Origin: Chitinophagales bacterium
GTDB taxonomy: Bacteria > Bacteroidota > Bacteroidia > Chitinophagales > CAIODY01
Length of the DNA stretch: 46,638 bases
Reading direction: 5' to 3'
NCBI GenBank assembly: GCA_947452995.1
Contig: CANGEV010000019.1
Location: 1 to 46,638, forward strand
The notes beneath the pieces are model-generated. The model had not been told where the DNA came from and made no database searches. It saw nothing but the letters and a program-made list of their open reading frames with translations. Shown piece after piece: positions 2,976 to 44,602 of the stretch. Position numbers and translations under genes: made by a program. How positions within the stretch are numbered: position 1 is the first letter of the stretch; every line of letters begins with the position of its first letter.

Positions 2976-3042
2976 TGAAATTTTGTTTCAAATATGTAAA
3001 AATATTTTCAAAAACACTTTCATTTTGAAATAAAATTTCAAA
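2976..3042. promoter_or_regulatory. Candidate WYL operator: cluster of TGAAA/TTTCA inverted repeats
   Basis: The WYL/AAA+ intergenic region carries a cluster of related inverted repeats. 2976-2990 is TGAAA-5 nt-TTTCA. 3008-3030 contains TTTCAAAA and TTTTGAAA arms with 9 nt between. 3024-3042 is TTTGAAAT-AAA-ATTTCAAA, a perfect 8-bp inverted repeat with a 3-bp spacer, whose outer flanks CACTTT (3015) and AAAGTG also pair. Such symmetric sites between a regulator and its divergent target are what an operator for the WYL protein would look like. The stretch is very AT-rich, so chance contributes. Confidence 0.5.
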
Positions 3043-9293: not shown

Positions 9294-9312
9294 ACTAGAA
9301 TTAAAACATTAA

Positions 9313-9350
9313 AACAAAAAGGGCAATCTGTTTAGATTGCCCTTTTTGTT
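9313..9350. terminator. Strong bidirectional intrinsic terminator
   Basis: A perfect 17-bp stem (9313-9329 and 9334-9350) with a 4-nt loop lies between convergent genes. Its core is GGGCAATCT/AGATTGCCC, flanked by A5 on the left and T5 on the right, so it can stop transcription from both the small gene at 9027 and the CotH gene at 9379. Confidence 0.9.
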
Positions 9351-9378
9351 TAAGAATTACTTTACGCGCTTCATTAAA

Positions 9379-36696: not shown

Positions 36697-36773
36697 ATGC
36701 GGTTACTTTAAGAATAATAAAAATTTTAATATTGCGTAAAATTAATTATATTTAGAATATAAAAGTTTTGATT

Positions 36774-39700
36774 ATGAAAAAGGCAATCATTTTTCTAGTT
36801 TCATTTTATTTAATTTGTTTAAGCGTCAAAGCACAAAAAGGTTGGATTCCATTAATTGATCAACTTCCTAATAAACCGTTGTCAGTTAATGGACGGATAA
36901 CGAGTGTATTGGCAGATCGTTTTGGTTCAATATATGCTGGAGGAGATTTTAAAAACAATTATCAGCACTTTTACGTTGCAAAACATGATAGTACAGGGTG
37001 GTATGAACTAGGAGGTTTAAATTCTTTAGCTGCGAATGGAAATATCTTATCTATTTGTAATGATAGTTTTGGGAATATTTATGCTGCAGGTTCGTTTAGA
37101 AATTCACAGGGATATTATTATGTTGCAAAATATGACGGTGTCAATTGGAGTGAATTAGGGGGTTCGAATAGTTTAGGGGTAAATACTACGAATTCAATTT
37201 TGTGTATATGTAGTGATAAATATGGAAATATTTATGCTGCAGGTACTTTTCGGAATAGCCTAGGAAAACGTTATGTAGCAAAATACGATGGAACGAGTTG
37301 GACGGAGTTGGGAGGATTGAATGCGCTTTCAGCAAATGATAAGATAGTAAATATTTGTTGTGATACTTTAGGTAATTTATATGCTGCCGGAAATTTTTCC
37401 GATGTGAATGGTCGTTTTTATGTTGCTAAATATAATGGAACGGTATGGAGTCAATTAGGAACGTTAAGTAATACGATTTTTAATGGTATAATAACCGCAT
37501 TAACATGTGATATAAATTCTAATGTTTATGTTTCAGGGAGCTTTACTAATGGGATGGGTTATAAATATGTGGCGAAATATGATGGAACAAATTGGAAAGA
37601 GTTAGGAGGTGTTAATTCATTATATATTAGTGGTAATGTAAATTGTCTCAAAACAGATATGACAGGAAATGTGTATGCTGCTGGTGATTTGATTAATGGA
37701 GTGGGTATTAGATTTGTGGCAAAGTATGACACTGTAACATGGACAGAGGTAGGAGGTATAAATTCTTTGCCAATAAATGGGAGTGTAAATGGGATGTTTG
37801 TTGATAAAATAGGGAGGGTTTTTTTAGGCGGTGATTTTTATGATTCGCATTTTAAACAGTATATGGTGGAATGGGATACTGTAAAATGGCTTGTACCTGC
37901 ATTTCAATGGCCATTAAAACCTGCTAGTTTCTTTAATAATCTTGTAACAGATTCTATTGGAAATATTATTGCAACTGGCGATTTGGTTGATTCGAGCGGA
38001 TTATATACCGTGGGAAAATATAATGGAATTGGATGGTTAAAACTAGGTGATACCAGCTTTTTTAATAACCAGCCGAATTCACTTTGTAGAGATAAAGCCG
38101 GGAATATTTATGTTTCTGGAGAATTTACAAATGCTAATGGACATTATTATGTGGCAAAATTTGATGGTCAAAATTGGAGTGAATTAGGAGGATTTGATTC
38201 ATTAGCAGCAAATGGTAGTATTGGTACAATGTGCATTGATAAAAATGATAATGTATATATAGGGGGAAGATTCACCAATTCAAAGGGATTTAAATATGTA
38301 GCAAAATTTGATGGTGTTAAATGGCGCGAGGTAAAGGGTTTGAATACATTATCGGTAGTTGGGGATATAAGAGCACTTGAATGTGACACTTTCAGTAATG
38401 TGTATGTGTCTGGTAATTTTAAAAACAGTTATAATGAATACTATGTTTCTAAATTTGATGGAAGTATTTGGAAAGAATTGGAGGTATTGAATCGTTTGTC
38501 AGCCAATGGTTGGATAAATAGTATTAAGGTTGATGGAGTGGGAAATGTGTATGTCGGAGGTCGGTTTACCAATTCAAAAGGGAAATATTACGTAGCAAAA
38601 TTTGATGGTCAAAATTGGTTAGAGTTAGGAACTGCATTTCCTTTATCTGCAAATAATTGTATACAAAAAATTTGTTTAGATAATTCAAATCAGGTTTATG
38701 TTGCCGGAGATTTTACCAATAATACAGGAGAGAATTATGTAGCAAAATTTGACGGAAATGTTTGGTCTGAGGTATGGGCTACAAAACCATTGAGCGCAAA
38801 CAGTTCTATATTAACGCTAATGATTGATTCAGCACAGAAGCTTTATGCTGCAGGATATTTTACTAACACGTTAAATGAAAACTATGTAGCGCAATGTATA
38901 CCTGAAAAAACAAGTGTACTAATTAAGACTGCAAGCTTGTGTCATGGTAAGACTTATACATTTGACGCAAAAAACTATACAGCTACAGGAACCTATTATT
39001 ATTATGTTTCTAATTATATGGGGGGCGATTCATTGGTTTTATTGAATCTTAACTTTTTCGATTATAAAAGTAATGTATGCGCTGTTACTGCTGATGTAAA
39101 TTCCACTCACAATATTGTAACATGGGAAAAACCTGCAGATTTAAAGGCTGGTGTAGATAGTTTTAGAATTTACAGGGATACGGGTAGTGGCGTGTTTGAT
39201 TATTTAGCTTCTATATATGGGGATTCTTTGTCCTTATATGATGACTATAGTGCTGACCCCAATAAAAAAGCGTATAAATACAAAATGTGTTTTGTTGATA
39301 CGTGCGGACAGTTACTTGCATTGGGTCCATTTCATAAATCAATCTTTTTAGAAAATCTTGGTAAAGGAAATTTACAATGGAATTTATATCAAAGAGAGTT
39401 TCAAGCAACTACAGGTACATGTTATTATGTATCGAGGGATGATAGCAGTACGGGCAATTTCTTTGTTATTAGTTCGGCATTATTACCTTCTGTGACAAAT
39501 TTTAATGATACTGATTATTATAAATTTCCAAATGCGAGATATCGTGTTTCTTTGGCTGGAGCTTTGTCTTGTGTGATATCAAAAAGTATGAATGGTTCCA
39601 TTTCAAATTATTGCCCACAAAAAAGTAATGTTGGCTTTGAAACGATAAAAAATAGTGTTTCTATATTTCCGAATCCTACCTCAGGTTTAATTCAGATATT

Positions 39701-39887
39701 TTCAACAAAAAAAATAAATGATGCCAATATTCAGGTGTTAAATTTAGAAGGAAAGTTATTACAAGTGAAGAGTAAACAAACTGGACAGCTTTTTAAATTT
39801 GACCTTACAAATTTTTCGTCTGGTATCTATATAATTCGAATAGTCACTAAGGAAGGAATATTACAGTACAAGATTGTTAAGGACTAG
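36774..39887 (+). CDS. Large T9SS protein with 13-14 tandem blade-like repeats
   Basis: 1037 residues from the ATG at 36774 (a TTG six bases before is unlikely). Signal peptide MKKAIIFLVSFYLICLSVKA. Residues of about 30-710 consist of roughly 13-14 repeats of about 50 residues, each of the form GN.YA.G.F.N..G..YVAK(Y/F)DG..W.ELGG.NSL..N..I.. , typical of beta-propeller-like proteins. A fibronectin-III-like segment (VNSTHNIVTWEKPADLKAGVDSFRIYRDTG) lies near 775-830, and a T9SS type A domain ends it (VSIFPNPTSGLIQIF). Repeats 7 and 8 are the most diverged. Secreted or surface-attached, probably a binding scaffold. No enzyme signature was found. Confidence 0.88.
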   Translation: MKKAIIFLVSFYLICLSVKAQKGWIPLIDQLPNKPLSVNGRITSVLADRFGSIYAGGDFKNNYQHFYVAKHDSTGWYELGGLNSLAANGNILSICNDSFGNIYAAGSFRNSQGYYYVAKYDGVNWSELGGSNSLGVNTTNSILCICSDKYGNIYAAGTFRNSLGKRYVAKYDGTSWTELGGLNALSANDKIVNICCDTLGNLYAAGNFSDVNGRFYVAKYNGTVWSQLGTLSNTIFNGIITALTCDINSNVYVSGSFTNGMGYKYVAKYDGTNWKELGGVNSLYISGNVNCLKTDMTGNVYAAGDLINGVGIRFVAKYDTVTWTEVGGINSLPINGSVNGMFVDKIGRVFLGGDFYDSHFKQYMVEWDTVKWLVPAFQWPLKPASFFNNLVTDSIGNIIATGDLVDSSGLYTVGKYNGIGWLKLGDTSFFNNQPNSLCRDKAGNIYVSGEFTNANGHYYVAKFDGQNWSELGGFDSLAANGSIGTMCIDKNDNVYIGGRFTNSKGFKYVAKFDGVKWREVKGLNTLSVVGDIRALECDTFSNVYVSGNFKNSYNEYYVSKFDGSIWKELEVLNRLSANGWINSIKVDGVGNVYVGGRFTNSKGKYYVAKFDGQNWLELGTAFPLSANNCIQKICLDNSNQVYVAGDFTNNTGENYVAKFDGNVWSEVWATKPLSANSSILTLMIDSAQKLYAAGYFTNTLNENYVAQCIPEKTSVLIKTASLCHGKTYTFDAKNYTATGTYYYYVSNYMGGDSLVLLNLNFFDYKSNVCAVTADVNSTHNIVTWEKPADLKAGVDSFRIYRDTGSGVFDYLASIYGDSLSLYDDYSADPNKKAYKYKMCFVDTCGQLLALGPFHKSIFLENLGKGNLQWNLYQREFQATTGTCYYVSRDDSSTGNFFVISSALLPSVTNFNDTDYYKFPNARYRVSLAGALSCVISKSMNGSISNYCPQKSNVGFETIKNSVSIFPNPTSGLIQIFSTKKINDANIQVLNLEGKLLQVKSKQTGQLFKFDLTNFSSGIYIIRIVTKEGILQYKIVKD

Positions 39888-39892
39888 TATAA

Positions 39893-39945
39893 TTATTCCT
39901 TCACCACCCGCATCGTTTTTGTTCCACGTGCGTCGTTGAGTTGAA
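39893..39945. repeat. 53-bp direct repeat, copy A (non-coding)
   Basis: 53 bases identical to 41165-41217. Copy B is the last 17 codons, with the stop, of the T9SS gene on the minus strand. Copy A has no gene body attached and abuts the stop codon of the RelE-like toxin gene at 39946. The spacing of the two copies is 1272 bp. Confidence 0.95.
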
Positions 39946-40290
39946 TTACGGAATGTTTTTAATAATGCGGATTCGATCTTCAGTCGATTTTTCATTTTTG
40001 TGATAAAGTTCTATTAGTATTATTTTATGTTCTAATTCAAAATATGCATAAATGAGACGAAGGCCTGTATTAACACCTCGGCCTTTTAATGATTTACATG
40101 CGATCTTTTTTATTTTGATGATCGGTGTTTTAACTGGAATATGGTTGATTCGAAAACTGAATGGTACTCTCTCCTGAGGGAGATAAGTTAAAATTTGTTT
40201 AAGTACGATAAGGTCATCTTGTAATGAGAGGTACTTTTTATTTAATTGTTTTAAATCTTTATCAAACTCCGGAAGGTGCTCAAATTTCAT
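39946..40290 (-). CDS. RelE/ParE-fold toxin of a type II TA module
   Basis: 114 residues. MKFEHLPEFDKDLKQLNKKYLSLQDDL is the two-helix start of RelE/ParE-type toxins. The later strands read IIKIKKIACKSLKGRGVNTGLRLIYAYFELEHKIILIELYHKNEKSTEDRIRII, with the RLIYAYF and IELYHKNEKS segments typical of the fold's sheet and C-terminal loop. Members are ribosome-dependent ribonucleases or gyrase poisons; the sequence does not decide which. It starts 1 bp after the stop of the antitoxin gene on the same strand, and its own stop codon abuts the 53-bp repeat. Confidence 0.8.
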   Translation of the reverse strand: MKFEHLPEFDKDLKQLNKKYLSLQDDLIVLKQILTYLPQERVPFSFRINHIPVKTPIIKIKKIACKSLKGRGVNTGLRLIYAYFELEHKIILIELYHKNEKSTEDRIRIIKNIP

Positions 40291-40291
40291 T

Positions 40292-41089
40292 TTAATCTAA
40301 TTCTGTTTGATAGTTTTTAAATGAATAGGGTGCTTCACGGTAGAGTGCTAGTTCGTAATTTATAACATCACCTGTTGAGGTTACTTTTAAAGGCAAATCA
40401 TTTGCAGCATATTCTGACAGATAATCGTATGGCCAATCACACATTTGCGTGATTACTTGATTTATACAATCTATTTCGCTTGCGTTAAAGTTTTTAAGCT
40501 GCGGATTTTGGAGTGGAAGTAAACGAAAGAAGCTTTTGTTTCGTTCTACCACCTTTACCTTTTTAAGGAGTTTATCCTGTTGCATTCGCGCTAGTGTTAA
40601 ATCTAAATGTTCTGCTACAGGCCTATTGTTTAGCTTTAAATAATTAGTACCCGACAGATGTTCTTCTTGCAATTCATAATAATTGAAGTCGCAGAAATAC
40701 ATTAATAGATGGAATGCGGATTCTGTAATATTGGCGTTTCCAGCACATTGTTTTAGAAGATAGAGAAGTGTTTGTTCTCTTTTTTTCTCGTTGGGTGCCG
40801 GACTTGAAATACGCTGTTCTGATTTTAAATAAACGGCCGTCTCTTGAACCTGACGAATTATATTGCCGTTATACTCTTTGGATAAAAAAGAATCAATGGA
40901 GAAATTCAAAATTTGTGCAATTTTTTGAAGTTCTTGAATGTCCAGCCCTCTATTTCCTAACTCGATTTGCGTAAGTGAGGGACGCGAAATCTTTATTGAT
41001 TTTGCAAGATCCTCTTGTGACCACCCCTTGTTAATACGAAGTTGGGCAATACGTTTGCCTATTTGTTTTCTAGAAAGTTTGTAATACAT
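40292..41089 (-). CDS. XRE HTH plus Panacea/SocA-like (DUF4065) antitoxin
   Basis: 265 residues. Residues 6-66 form a helix-turn-helix of the XRE type (KQIGKRIAQLRINKGWSQEDLAKSIKISRPSLTQIELGNR). Residues of about 105-180 resemble the SocA/DUF4065 (Panacea) domain: LLYLLKQCAGN, FHLLMYFCDFNYYELQEEHLSGTNYLKLNNRPVAEHLDLTLARMQQD. The Panacea domain is known as a versatile antitoxin module that neutralises many unrelated toxins. Fused to an HTH it can both bind the toxin and repress the operon. The antitoxin is upstream of the toxin. The C-terminal tail (about 215-265) has no recognised match. The domain call is from motif memory only. Confidence 0.75.
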   Translation of the reverse strand: MYYKLSRKQIGKRIAQLRINKGWSQEDLAKSIKISRPSLTQIELGNRGLDIQELQKIAQILNFSIDSFLSKEYNGNIIRQVQETAVYLKSEQRISSPAPNEKKREQTLLYLLKQCAGNANITESAFHLLMYFCDFNYYELQEEHLSGTNYLKLNNRPVAEHLDLTLARMQQDKLLKKVKVVERNKSFFRLLPLQNPQLKNFNASEIDCINQVITQMCDWPYDYLSEYAANDLPLKVTSTGDVINYELALYREAPYSFKNYQTELD

Positions 41090-41130
41090 CCCTATACCTA
41101 TTTATTAAAATAAAAATAGGGGTTGTTATT

Positions 41131-41163
41131 AAACAAAACAAATAATTGTTTTAAAACAAAACA
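41131..41163. promoter_or_regulatory. Candidate operator of the HTH-Panacea TA operon
   Basis: AAACAAAACA occurs at 41131-41140 and again at 41154-41163 (23 bp apart), and the perfect 14-bp palindrome TTGTTTTAAAACAA covers 41146-41159. It lies 42-74 bp upstream of the antitoxin start, inside the cassette and immediately next to repeat copy B. Confidence 0.5.
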
Positions 41164-41164
41164 T

Positions 41165-41217
41165 TTATTCCTTCACCACCCGCATCGTTTTTGTTCCACG
41201 TGCGTCGTTGAGTTGAA
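41165..41217. repeat. 53-bp direct repeat, copy B (coding)
   Basis: Identical to 39893-39945. Encodes the C-terminal end of the T9SS protein on the minus strand (ending ...ARGTKTMRVVKE and stop), so this is the ancestral context. Confidence 0.95.
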
Positions 41218-42778
41218 GGAGGTATGTGCCTGGTGCTAATTGGGAAAAATCAAAGTCGGAAAGAGACTTCGTATTTCCTTGCGCAATTGTTTGTCCCATT
41301 AAGTTGCACAATTTAAAATTCGTATCTGCATTGCTTGCAGTGAGATAAATATGATCGGAGAAGGGGTTAGGAAAAACACGTTGCACTTCGTTAGTAATGT
41401 CGCTTGCTAGCGATGCTGTTAAAACACAGTTGTCAGAAAGATGATTGCTGTTTTCTATCGTTGTACTAGCAGTTAAAACTTTTCCATTAAAGGCGCTATA
41501 ACTTTTATCGTAGTAGTAGGCTCTAAAAACTTGGTTTTGTGTCGGCGTTGCGTTTTGTGCTAAGACCCCGCCGTTATAGACGGGACTCGTATAAGCCCAT
41601 ACGGTGTTTTCGTTGGAATCGACTTCTATGAAAGCGCCTGCAGGACCATTACACAACAAGATGTTTTTGTTGTTGAGTAATTGGGCATTAGAAATATTCT
41701 GTGCATAGTAGTTATGCGTATTATTTGCATTGTAAAGGATGTTAGCTGCATTGGGAAAAAAGGGGAGGCTTGTAGTATAGTTGTAGTTGGTGAGTGGTGT
41801 TTGAATTTTGTCGACGCTGGAGTAGTTACCGCCCGTTCTGTTGAGTCCATTATTAAATACTAAAATTTCTCCTGTATTGTTTAACCAATGCGCACTGTGT
41901 TGTCCGAATAACTGCTGTGTGGCGTTATTATTATAGGCACTAGGATTTCCCCAACGATATAATAAATCGCCGCCTAGATTTGCGTTGCCACCGACGTTTC
42001 CGCTTGCTTGCGAAGTTGTGGTACTATGATCGATTATCCAAATTTCGCTGAAGGCATGTGAGCTAAGCAAAATCTGATTGAGGCTTGCATTATAATCAAT
42101 GGCATTCAGGTGGGTCCAGTCGCTTTGTGTTGCGGAGCTGTTGTAATTGATATTTACCTTGTTGGGGCTATTCGCCACTACGCCATAGTTAGCTTTTGTG
42201 TTGTCGTAATCTTGTACGAGATGATCCCAGAGATGCCACTCCCAAACGATTGTAGCGTTGTTGGTTCCTTGTGCTTGTAGTTCAATAATTTTTTCACTCC
42301 ATAAATAATTTGGACAAAGACTAGGGTTTCTTCCGGCAGCAATAGCCTCTGCTTTTGTTTTTCTTTCCCAGGAGATGACTAATACATTACCATTTGGAAG
42401 CGCTTTGATATCGTGGTGTTGACATTGATTTGTATCTGAAATAGTATAGCTCCACTGTACGTTGCCATTCCAATCTATCTTTTCAATGGTGCCCCCTTTT
42501 CCACCGGCATTAAAAGTTGTATTGTTTTTGTTTCCTGAACGCAATAAGGTTCCGTCTTCTAAAAGATAAACGGCTTGTCCTGGTTTGTAATTGCTGTTCC
42601 ACGCGTGCACTTGTTTTCCGCAAGCGTCGATGAGGTAAGTGGTGGTGCTGCTGATTGGTGCGAAAAGAATATAGCCATTATCAAGTGTACTGGCTTGATG
42701 TTGTAATAAGCCGACAGTTTGTGCATTTCCTGAGATTAATAAAAGAAGGCTCGCCAAAAAAGAAAAAACAGTTTTCAT
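41165..42778 (-). CDS. Arylsulfotransferase-like T9SS-secreted protein, second copy
   Basis: 537 residues. Signal peptide MKTVFSFLASLLLLISGNAQ. The propeller region matches the protein at 12730-14412 motif by motif: IDWNGNVQWSYTI, CQHHDIKALPNGNVLVISWE, IVWEWHLWDHLVQDYDNTKANYG, WTHLNAIDYNASLNQILLSSH, IIDHSTTT, DLLYRWGNPSAYN. It lacks the immunoglobulin-like domain of the other copy. It ends with a T9SS type A domain (RVFPNPFSDHIYL ... LNDARGTKTMRVVKE). The last 17 codons are duplicated on the far side of the toxin-antitoxin cassette. Activity of such secreted proteins is unproven. Confidence 0.85.
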   Translation of the reverse strand: MKTVFSFLASLLLLISGNAQTVGLLQHQASTLDNGYILFAPISSTTTYLIDACGKQVHAWNSNYKPGQAVYLLEDGTLLRSGNKNNTTFNAGGKGGTIEKIDWNGNVQWSYTISDTNQCQHHDIKALPNGNVLVISWERKTKAEAIAAGRNPSLCPNYLWSEKIIELQAQGTNNATIVWEWHLWDHLVQDYDNTKANYGVVANSPNKVNINYNSSATQSDWTHLNAIDYNASLNQILLSSHAFSEIWIIDHSTTTSQASGNVGGNANLGGDLLYRWGNPSAYNNNATQQLFGQHSAHWLNNTGEILVFNNGLNRTGGNYSSVDKIQTPLTNYNYTTSLPFFPNAANILYNANNTHNYYAQNISNAQLLNNKNILLCNGPAGAFIEVDSNENTVWAYTSPVYNGGVLAQNATPTQNQVFRAYYYDKSYSAFNGKVLTASTTIENSNHLSDNCVLTASLASDITNEVQRVFPNPFSDHIYLTASNADTNFKLCNLMGQTIAQGNTKSLSDFDFSQLAPGTYLLQLNDARGTKTMRVVKE

Positions 42779-42808
42779 ACAATAGGTTTTAGCGAGCGGG
42801 CTCGTTCA

Positions 42809-44602
42809 TTATTTAAAATGCGCTTTAATAATTTTTGCTTTTTGAACGCCTACCACTTCTGCGAGTGCATCCAAAGAAGCAGCTTTAACATTTGCAACAC
42901 TTCTAAATCTTTTCAGCAGGGCTGTATTCGTTTCTGGTCCGATGCCTTTGATCTTCGTAAGTTCTGGAATAAGCGTTGCCTTATCGCGGCGGCTTCTATG
43001 GTGTGTAATCCCGAAGCGGTGTGCTTCGTCACGCAAGTGTTGTATCACACGAAGTGCGGGCGACTTCTTACTGATATGTAAAGGAACAGGATCGTTCGGC
43101 ACGTAAATTTCCTCCAATCGTTTGGCGATAGAGGCGAGCGCTACCTTGCCGATAAGTCCTAATTTTTTCAAGGATTCATAAGCGGCGCTGAGCTGACCTT
43201 TACCACCGTCAATTAAGATGAGTTGTGGTAGCGGCGCAGCTTCTTCGATCATACGTTTGTAGCGACGGAACACCACCTCTTCCATGGTGGCGAAGTCGTT
43301 GGGACCTTCTACCGTTTTAACATTGAAGTGACGATAGTCTTTTTTGCTTGGTTTTCCATTCTTAAAAACGACCATCGCGCTTACTGGGTAATCGCCTTGG
43401 AAGTTACTATTATCGAAGCACTCGATATGCATGGGTAGCTCTGTCAGGCGAAACTCTTTCTGCAATTCTTTAAGCACAGAAAATTCTTCTGTCTTGATTT
43501 TTATGTTCATCTCGCCAGCGAGCTTTTTGTTTTTGTAGTAGAGCGCATTTTTCTGACAGAGGTCGAGCAGTTGTTTTTTATCGCCGCGTTGTGGAACGGT
43601 GACTTCGATATCAGGATCGCCGAGTTCGACTTCGAAAGGTACAACGACTTCGGTAGATGGGGATCGGTGTAGCTGACGAAGGTGAAGGACGGCATAGGCG
43701 AGTAGTTCTTCTTTCGTTTCGTCGAGTTGCGGCTTCAGTTCGATGGTTTGTGTAGCGACGGCGGAGCCTTGGACGATACGCATGAAGTTGACGAAGTTGT
43801 GTTGTCCTTCGCTTACCATTCCGAAGACGTCGATATTGGTGATTTCTGGTTTTACGAGTGTCGAGGTGTCGCGGAATTTTTGGAGTGCTTGAATTTTTGT
43901 TTTTAGCTGATGTGCTTTTTCGAATTCAAGTTTTTCTGCGGCGCTCATCATTTTTTCAGAAAGGTGTTGAATAACGGAGCCGGTGTTTCCTTTTAATATC
44001 TGTCGTATCTGTGCGATGTTTTCATCATATTCTTCTTGGCTTTGCAAGCCAACGCAAGGTCCCTTACAATTGCCGATATGGTATTCTAAGCAAACTTGAA
44101 ATTTATTTGCGCGAATTTGATAGTCGTTGAGTGTAAGGTTGCAGGTACGGATTTTAAATTCTTTGTGGAACAGTTCAATCAAAGTATAGACTGCGCCTAC
44201 AGAAGGGAATGGGCCGAAGAACTTAGAACCGTCGGGTGTTACTTTGCGGGCGGTGAATACTTTTGGAAAGCGTTCGTTACCGATACAGATCAGCGGATAG
44301 GTCTTATCGTCTTTTAGAAGAATATTGTAGCGGGGCTGATAACTTTTAATCAGCGAGTTTTCGAGGATGAGCGCGTCGCGTTCGGTATTGACGATGGTGA
44401 ATTCAATCCGTTCTGCAAGGCGGATGAGAATTTTGTGTCGGGTACTTTTATCGTGGATACCGACGAAATAAGAGGTGACGCGATTAAGTAAATTTTTCGC
44501 TTTACCGACATACAACACTTCGTTGTCTGGTCCGATAAAGCGGTAGACTCCTGGCTGTTTGGGTAAGCTTAGTTGAAACTCTTTAAACTCTTCGACTGTC
44601 AT
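42809..44602 (-). CDS. uvrC: Excinuclease ABC subunit C
   Basis: 597 residues, normal length. The GIY-YIG nuclease domain (about 12-90: LPKQPGVYRFIGPDNEVLYVGKAKNLLNRV) makes the 3' cut. A UVR motif (about 205-240: AAEKLEFEKAHQLKTKIQAL) binds UvrB. The RNase H-like C-terminal nuclease domain (CFDNSNFQGDYPVSAMVVF, LILIDGGKGQL, FGITHHRSRRDK) makes the 5' cut. A helix-hairpin-helix pair (TKIKGIGPETNTALLKRF) binds DNA. Nucleotide excision repair enzyme in the cytoplasm. The gap to the T9SS gene downstream is 30 bp, so read-through is possible. Confidence 0.97.
   Translation of the reverse strand: MTVEEFKEFQLSLPKQPGVYRFIGPDNEVLYVGKAKNLLNRVTSYFVGIHDKSTRHKILIRLAERIEFTIVNTERDALILENSLIKSYQPRYNILLKDDKTYPLICIGNERFPKVFTARKVTPDGSKFFGPFPSVGAVYTLIELFHKEFKIRTCNLTLNDYQIRANKFQVCLEYHIGNCKGPCVGLQSQEEYDENIAQIRQILKGNTGSVIQHLSEKMMSAAEKLEFEKAHQLKTKIQALQKFRDTSTLVKPEITNIDVFGMVSEGQHNFVNFMRIVQGSAVATQTIELKPQLDETKEELLAYAVLHLRQLHRSPSTEVVVPFEVELGDPDIEVTVPQRGDKKQLLDLCQKNALYYKNKKLAGEMNIKIKTEEFSVLKELQKEFRLTELPMHIECFDNSNFQGDYPVSAMVVFKNGKPSKKDYRHFNVKTVEGPNDFATMEEVVFRRYKRMIEEAAPLPQLILIDGGKGQLSAAYESLKKLGLIGKVALASIAKRLEEIYVPNDPVPLHISKKSPALRVIQHLRDEAHRFGITHHRSRRDKATLIPELTKIKGIGPETNTALLKRFRSVANVKAASLDALAEVVGVQKAKIIKAHFK

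What the first reader, a model, noticed from the sequence alone, without database searches (positions are those of the whole stretch)
39893..41217. Toxin-antitoxin cassette bracketed by a perfect 53-bp direct repeat copied from the end of a T9SS gene
The 53 bases from 39893 equal those from 41165, and copy B is the stop codon plus last 17 codons of the T9SS gene at 41165-42778. Between them lie exactly 1219 bp with a RelE-like toxin, an HTH-Panacea antitoxin and its operator. The toxin stop codon starts at the first base after copy A. This looks like an insertion at a gene's 3' end that preserved the gene, as integrative elements do at tRNA or tmRNA ends, but without any integrase. It could be a new minimal mobile unit mobilised in trans, or a product of recombination. 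The duplication makes excision by homologous recombination possible.
Basis: partly seen in the sequence, partly recalled or inferred. Interest (0 to 1): 0.75.

Follow-up and report, generated by a model that had tools for sequence, protein, structure and literature searches.

The report
Toxin-antitoxin insertion with duplicated gene tail
A two-gene toxin-antitoxin cassette sits between two identical copies of the last 53 bases of a neighbouring gene, most likely the scar of foreign DNA recombined in beside that gene, and distant relatives of the cassette carry similar scars at unrelated genes.

Summary
The 53-bp repeat is exact, is not found elsewhere in this genome, and brackets a 1219-bp PanA/RelE-fold toxin-antitoxin (TA) pair; one copy is the 3' end of an arylsulfotransferase gene (X) with a T9SS sorting tail. 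Homologous TA pairs are bracketed by other direct repeats in 9 of 70 unselected loci (1.3 expected from control segments): gene 3' ends, terminators or dispersed repeats. Cassette ends are not conserved: in one genome the right end cuts a third TA-operon gene at a 5-7 bp microhomology. No integrase or transposase gene was seen between the repeats in the 11 loci read plus the window. An empty site exists for one case (icd terminator, Pedobacter-like genus). In the window the host gene is not ancestral at this place either: in both same-genus genomes dnaN and uvrC are neighbours, where the window has 6.1 kb (propeller gene, cassette, X). Best explanation: homology-facilitated illegitimate recombination (gene displacement) that left the old gene tail behind, i.e. 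the 'insertion with long target duplication' known for restriction-modification genes, here with a TA. A dedicated minimal mobile unit is unlikely but not excluded.

The parts
39893..39945 (-). repeat copy A: detached copy of the 3' end of gene X, directly after the toxin stop codon
39946..40290 (-). RelE/HigB-fold toxin, 114 aa
   Evidence: ORF; model; Foldseek; profile match to HigB-2 E 0.0013
40292..41089 (-). antitoxin, HTH plus Panacea domain (PanA type), 265 aa
   Evidence: Pfam
41090..41164 (-). upstream region of the TA operon; begins directly after the stop codon of X
   Evidence: sequence, junction
41146..41159 (.). palindrome TTGTTTTAAAACAA, putative operator; similar sequence lies upstream of the homologous antitoxins in L112 and L284
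   Evidence: function inferred
41165..41217 (-). repeat copy B: 3' end of gene X in place
41165..42778 (-). gene X, arylsulfotransferase with T9SS type A sorting tail
   Evidence: Pfam, NCBIfam
36768..39887 (+). gene Y, convergent beta-propeller protein with T9SS tail; ends 5 bp before copy A
36703..42812 (.). 6.1-kb stretch between dnaN and uvrC, replaced by 26 bp in same-genus genome G002

Best explanation
The cassette is an ordinary type II TA operon that entered by recombination beside gene X. Inferred course: incoming DNA carrying an X-like gene followed directly by the TA operon paired with the resident X and recombined there; its other end joined illegitimately into the resident X about 50 bp before its stop codon. 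X stays whole, the TA lies behind it, and the last 53 bp of the old X remain beyond the TA, next to gene Y. This is homology-facilitated illegitimate recombination, or gene displacement leaving the old tail. Shown: the repeat, its exact borders, recurrence with unrelated genes, an empty site for one homologous case, and one junction with microhomology inside a truncated gene. Inferred: the route of DNA entry, that the donor already had X followed by TA, and which copy is the newcomer. The repeat could later allow RecA-type excision, which the toxin would counterselect.
For: Bracketing repeats around homologous TA pairs: 9 of 70 loci with both flanks at least 600 bp (80 fetched, 10 left out for short flanks), against 1.33 expected for same-size control segments in the same loci, never reached in 20,000 simulations. 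The repeats differ in sequence and kind: metallophosphoesterase 3' end (G041), 136-aa gene end plus terminator (G266), 287-aa gene end (L119), terminators (L104, L105, G720). In G266 the third gene of the operon, whole in G352, is cut where the repeat starts, at GTGAAGC/GTGAAAC. In G041 the two copies differ by 13 synonymous and 1 nonsynonymous changes, so both evolved as working genes before coming together; decay of a copy made in place is rejected (0 of 20,000 simulations; 0.0005 under a milder null whose 0.29 share was my assumption). Empty site: G778 has one icd terminator where G720 has terminator-TA-terminator. L152 carries a decayed second copy of its own toxin's 3' end downstream, as displacement would leave.
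Against: No genome with X followed by this TA but without the second tail was found, so the donor arrangement is hypothetical. In the window the junction shows no clear microhomology, and the repeat stops exactly at two stop codons, which looks more precise than random joining. In G266 the substitutions (8 synonymous, 14 nonsynonymous) fit decay of one copy after duplication in place (P 0.30), so not every case shows foreign origin. With 53 of 53 bases identical the window itself says nothing on which copy is foreign. Natural competence of this organism was not tested.
Confidence: 0.55

Rival explanations
1. Tandem-copy relic: X was recently duplicated in tandem, and the TA replaced nearly all of the second copy, leaving only its last 53 bp.
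For: Tandem arylsulfotransferase genes are seen in several genomes of the order, e.g. G007, G014, G018, G032 (self-matches). It needs no special donor.
Against: The tandem pairs examined are diverged (matching blocks of about 65-76% identity), whereas the window repeat is 100% identical. The other target genes (metallophosphoesterase, icd) were not seen as tandem pairs in the searches made.
Confidence: 0.12
2. Relic of a larger integrative element whose attachment sites were the X gene end and whose integrase and other genes were lost, leaving only the TA because its loss is lethal.
For: Restoration of a gene 3' end with a diverged copy is typical of such elements (recalled), and the G041 copies differ mainly by synonymous changes.
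Against: No integrase or transposase gene was seen between the repeats in any of 11 bracketed loci read or the window; cassette ends are arbitrary; many unrelated targets for related TA pairs; 53 of 53 identity leaves little time for reduction.
Confidence: 0.1
3. Circle integration: a circle with TA plus one repeat, excised by homologous recombination elsewhere, integrates by a single homologous crossover at the matching gene tail in a new cell.
For: Gives the same structure with an intact gene and needs no integrase; explains diverged copies as in G041.
Against: Predicts that related TA pairs keep the same target gene. G266 and G352 carry a TA region 91% identical over 1.46 kb, yet the shared stretch stops about 10 bp into the repeat and G352 lacks the repeat.
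Confidence: 0.1
4. A dedicated minimal mobile TA unit inserted at gene 3' ends by a recombinase acting in trans.
For: Enrichment at 9 of 70 loci, TA as the only gene-sized ORFs of known kind between the repeats in 7 of 11 read loci, and six Phage_integrase-domain matches in the own genome, some outside the two full-length ones.
Against: Variable and truncated ends, no shared core seen between repeats, repeat lengths from 26 to 215 bp.
Confidence: 0.08
5. Assembly artefact around a 53-bp repeat in a draft assembly.
For: 36-contig genome of unknown origin; reads not available.
Against: Both junctions to the repeat are distinct sequence, the genome is rated 99.96% complete and 0.02% contaminated, and the same layout recurs in independent genomes.
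Confidence: 0.03

Closest known systems
Insertion with long target duplication of restriction-modification genes (Nobusato et al. 2000; Furuta et al. 2010; both papers not held, known here from passages in PMC1643837, PMC3031569, PMC3874152)
   Same: An addiction-type gene pair inserted in a chromosome between long, variable (about 100 bp) copies of the target, without a transposase
   Different: Here the cargo is a PanA/RelE-fold TA pair in Bacteroidota, and in G041 the two copies are diverged homologues and not a fresh duplication
Homology-facilitated illegitimate recombination and displacement arrays in T6SS/Rhs loci (Kirchberger et al. 2017, PMC5361080, passages read)
   Same: Anchor homology at one end, illegitimate joining at the other, remnants of the displaced gene left downstream
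   Different: There the remnants are orphan immunity genes and 3' ends of effectors; here a bare 53-bp gene tail beside a TA pair
Small variable segments flanked by repeats (PMC2884548, passages read)
   Same: 10-18% of variable segments in three species have flanking direct repeats; illegitimate recombination proposed
   Different: Most of those repeats are under 30 bp; here 26-215 bp, often gene ends or terminators
PanTA toxin-antitoxin systems (Kurata et al. 2022, PMC8832971, passages read; authors recalled)
   Same: Panacea-domain antitoxin encoded beside a toxin
   Different: That paper was read only in passages; this toxin family was not looked up in its supplementary lists
Elements that integrate at gene 3' ends and restore the gene (recalled, e.g. 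e14 at icd)
   Same: Target gene stays intact, tail duplicated, diverged copy possible
   Different: No integrase, no fixed ends, many targets

Membership tests
Type II TA with Panacea antitoxin | HTH plus Panacea antitoxin gene adjacent to a toxin gene | tested here: met
   PF12844/PF01381 and PF13274 above cut-off; the toxin ORF follows after 1 bp
Type II TA with Panacea antitoxin | conserved two-gene architecture in several species | tested here: met
   toxin matches at E 2e-26 or better in 15 genomes (own included) lie beside the antitoxin matches of those genomes
Type II TA with Panacea antitoxin | toxicity and neutralisation | not testable with these tools
   needs expression tests
RelE/HigB toxin superfamily | RelE fold | tested here: met
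   model pLDDT 89.5, best Foldseek matches HigB2 and RelE, prob 1.00, but no match at E 0.001 or below
RelE/HigB toxin superfamily | sequence match to a family model | tested here: inconclusive
   window toxin: no Pfam match; 6 of 12 homologues match RelE weakly, best E 0.0031
Insertion with long target duplication | addiction-type genes between long direct repeats of the target | tested here: met
Insertion with long target duplication | related genome with a single, empty target | tested here: inconclusive
   met for G720/G778; for the window the relatives lack the target gene too
Homology-facilitated illegitimate recombination | microhomology at the non-homologous junction | tested here: inconclusive
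   seen in G266; not clear in the window
Integrative element at a gene 3' end | integrase in the element | tested here: not met
   no integrase-like ORF by reading between the repeats in the window or in 11 other bracketed loci
Integrative element at a gene 3' end | fixed element ends and common core in the repeats | tested here: not met
   variable ends and unrelated repeats, by eye
Transposon or IS-borne cassette | transposase or terminal inverted repeats at the borders | tested here: not met
   no such ORF or inverted pair at the window borders

The most novel reading that the evidence does not exclude
PanA/RelE TA pairs of Bacteroidota are a class of minimal selfish genes that repeatedly settle at gene 3' ends and terminators with long target duplications, helped by a recombination function supplied in trans or triggered by the TA itself, parallel to restriction-modification genes.
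Probability: 0.12. Interest if true: 0.75.

Novelty: new member of a known kind. Interest (0 to 1): 0.42.

Why it matters
How TA pairs move between chromosomes without plasmids, phages or recombinases is, to my knowledge, poorly documented. The set of bracketed cassettes, with an empty site, a microhomology junction and a diverged tail copy, turns this into a question that strain-level genomes can answer, and extends to TA pairs a pattern described for restriction-modification genes.

Tried and rejected
T9SS-tail hotspot: the repeat occurs nowhere else in the genome, and among neighbours of the 80 TA loci only weak T9SS-tail matches were found, best E 0.0003 with three seed tails. Plasmid or phage carriage: no match; one relative in 2.9 million viral contigs. 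Integron-like array in Ferruginibacter-type genomes: a palindromic repeat and an IS-like end lie left of the G266 cassette, not followed up. A search for the empty site in the family of G010 held only that genome. First toxin model was poor (pLDDT 43.7) and was replaced by one on a larger alignment. One search stopped with an error and misread the orientation of minus-strand loci; replace it. L137 is among the 9 bracketed loci but has recR between its repeats and an inverted-repeat type element, so it is a weak case; L170 and L176 repeats are multi-copy. Repeat counts in the other sets: 3 of 17 order-level loci bracketed by strong repeats (the partial G181 locus and the own locus were not in that set, and two weak AT-rich matches were not counted: L090, and a second one in L082); 2 of 16 class-level loci (one of them weak, and 6 of the 16 are copies of loci already in the set of 80). 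Paper searches for TA with direct repeats and partial duplication, or target duplication, found no description of TA insertion with long target duplication in their listings (only CC-licensed PMC text is searched, and not all listed papers were opened).

Full report
Observation. The repeat is real and exact: 53 of 53 bases at 39893-39945 and 41165-41217, 1219 bp apart, no further copy within 3 mismatches in the window and none in 100 shuffles, none elsewhere in the own genome. On the minus strand the order is uvrC, X, TA operon, detached X tail, then the convergent end of Y. The repeat ends at the last base of X's stop codon; after copy B the TA upstream region starts at once, after copy A come 5 bp and the stop codon of Y. 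At the other end copy A follows the toxin stop codon directly.

What the genes are. The antitoxin has an HTH and a Panacea domain. The toxin is a RelE/HigB-fold protein: no Pfam match of its own, HigB-2 as best profile match in the PDB (E 0.0013; 0.0048 with the larger alignment), a confident model on 76 sequences (pLDDT 89.5) and HigB2 and RelE as nearest structures (E about 1e-3, so the fold call rests on the model, the prob of 1.00 and the profile match together). X is an arylsulfotransferase with a T9SS type A tail. Y is a propeller protein with a T9SS tail.

The place is not what it seemed. In the two other genomes of the genus, dnaN and uvrC are neighbours, tail to tail: 26 bp between the matched stretches in G002 (dnaN and uvrC regions 86-88% identical in DNA, uvrC 95% identical in protein), and directly abutting ORFs in G001. 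The window has 6.1 kb there: Y, detached tail, TA, X. So X is not an ancestral gene of this place, and the whole block, or its parts in turn, arrived there, unless it was lost in both relatives. I cannot order these events from the data. The toxin, antitoxin and Y genes are poorer in G+C at third codon positions (0.26, 0.30, 0.22) than X (0.40) and uvrC (0.47).

Recurrence. Antitoxin homologues are in 18 of 298 relatives (own genome included) and toxin homologues in 17 of 395 genomes of the class (own included). A scan of one genome per species gave 299 toxin relatives, of which the best 80 were kept as loci, without regard to repeats. In 70 with both flanks at least 600 bp, 9 are bracketed by low-copy direct repeats (E 1e-6 or better, gap 1-4 kb); control segments of the same size in the same loci give 1.33 expected, at most 6 in 20,000 simulations. 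The nine are L102, L104, L105, L119, L123, L137, L147, L170, L176. L137 is weak (recR lies between its repeats), L170 and L176 repeats are multi-copy. With the window, G041 and G720, the repeats are: gene ends (window, G041, L119), gene end plus terminator (G266, the same locus as L123), terminators (L104, L105, G720), and others. Between the repeats of 11 loci read, 7 hold the TA pair as the only gene-sized ORFs of known kind, and none holds an integrase or transposase as far as reading the ORFs tells; these ORFs were not run through Pfam.

Which way it happened. Four results bear on mechanism. First, G720 (a genome in a well-sampled genus that I take for Pedobacter, because G685 of that genus holds the Pedobacter sp. 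locus L146) has the TA between two 42-bp terminator copies (86% identical) behind icd, while G778 has a single terminator there and both outer flanks match. Of the genomes listed with a TA match in that search, all 14 that I compared have it away from icd; the match list was cut, so the count is a lower bound. Second, G266 and G352 share a TA region 91% identical over 1.46 kb; in G352 a third gene follows the toxin whole, in G266 this gene is cut and continues as the X tail at GTGAAGC/GTGAAAC. That is a microhomology joint, not an element end. Third, the two tails in G041 differ by 13 synonymous and one conservative change; a copy decaying after duplication in place is rejected. So two working homologues met there. 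G266, by contrast, fits decay of one copy, and L119's second copy has a frameshift and a further deletion. Fourth, L152 keeps a decayed second toxin 3' end behind its toxin; both L152 and its sister L163 have broken toxin genes.

Reading. These fit recombination anchored in a homologous gene or terminator with an illegitimate joint at the other end, leaving the old tail. The same structure is known as insertion with long target duplication for restriction-modification genes: PMC3874152 (passages) states target duplications of the order of 100 bp, PMC1643837 (passages, one a figure legend) describes the Helicobacter example; the original papers are not held. PMC5361080 (passages) proposes the same mechanism for displaced T6SS effectors with leftovers. 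PMC2884548 (passages) reports repeats at 10-18% of variable segments. A single homologous crossover by a circle, a tandem-copy relic, and a reduced integrative element remain as rivals. The own genome has six Phage_integrase-domain matches, two of them full-length and probably XerC/XerD (recalled, not tested), so a recombinase in trans is not excluded by absence.

Limits. No strain-level relative of the window was available, so neither copy can be called native. The random-placement control does not match gene type or intergenic position. Only best-scoring toxin relatives were examined. Junction microhomology was inspected by eye in a few loci. Gene names for flanking ORFs without a family search (dnaN, icd, recR, RNase H-like, metallophosphoesterase, asparagine synthase) are recalled from their sequences; uvrC has Pfam support.

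Noticed in passing
window 36703-42812: 6.1-kb block between the 3' ends of dnaN and uvrC, absent from both same-genus genomes; a variable site between convergent core genes.
   Followed up: partly
L119:4480-5112, L142, L135: A gene that reads like RNase H with a viroplasmin-type N-terminus recurs beside the TA pair in different genomes and orientations (66-70% DNA identity); another recurring neighbour stretch is shared by L120, L129 and L131.
   Followed up: no
L112 about 1565-1770, L111, L139, L155: Small conserved third gene (MKNLQNSGKEWSSADLKKLEK...) behind the toxin, possibly part of the operon.
   Followed up: partly
L081:10708-10843 and L230-L237: Dispersed palindromic repeat and an IS-like end left of the G266 cassette; the palindrome ends in GTTGGGT, reminiscent of integron attC sites (recalled).
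   Followed up: no
L133, L166, L170: Multi-copy intergenic repeat family (CAGGATTTACAGGATT...ACGTCTTCGGTTT) bracketing TA pairs in Saprospiraceae-type genomes.
   Followed up: no
L152:5086-5310, L163: Decayed second toxin 3' end behind the toxin in L152; toxin genes of L152 and L163 carry stop codons.
   Followed up: partly
L118, L132, L136, L144, L146, L174: TA pair in six Pedobacter species with flanks that match between several of them, apparently inherited vertically, in contrast to the insertion in G720.
   Followed up: no
G026:C395, G026:C292, G006 contigs: Several arylsulfotransferase-T9SS genes in a row on one contig.
   Followed up: no
window 9312-9351 and 2976-3040: Imperfect palindromes of 40 and 65 bp.
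   Followed up: no
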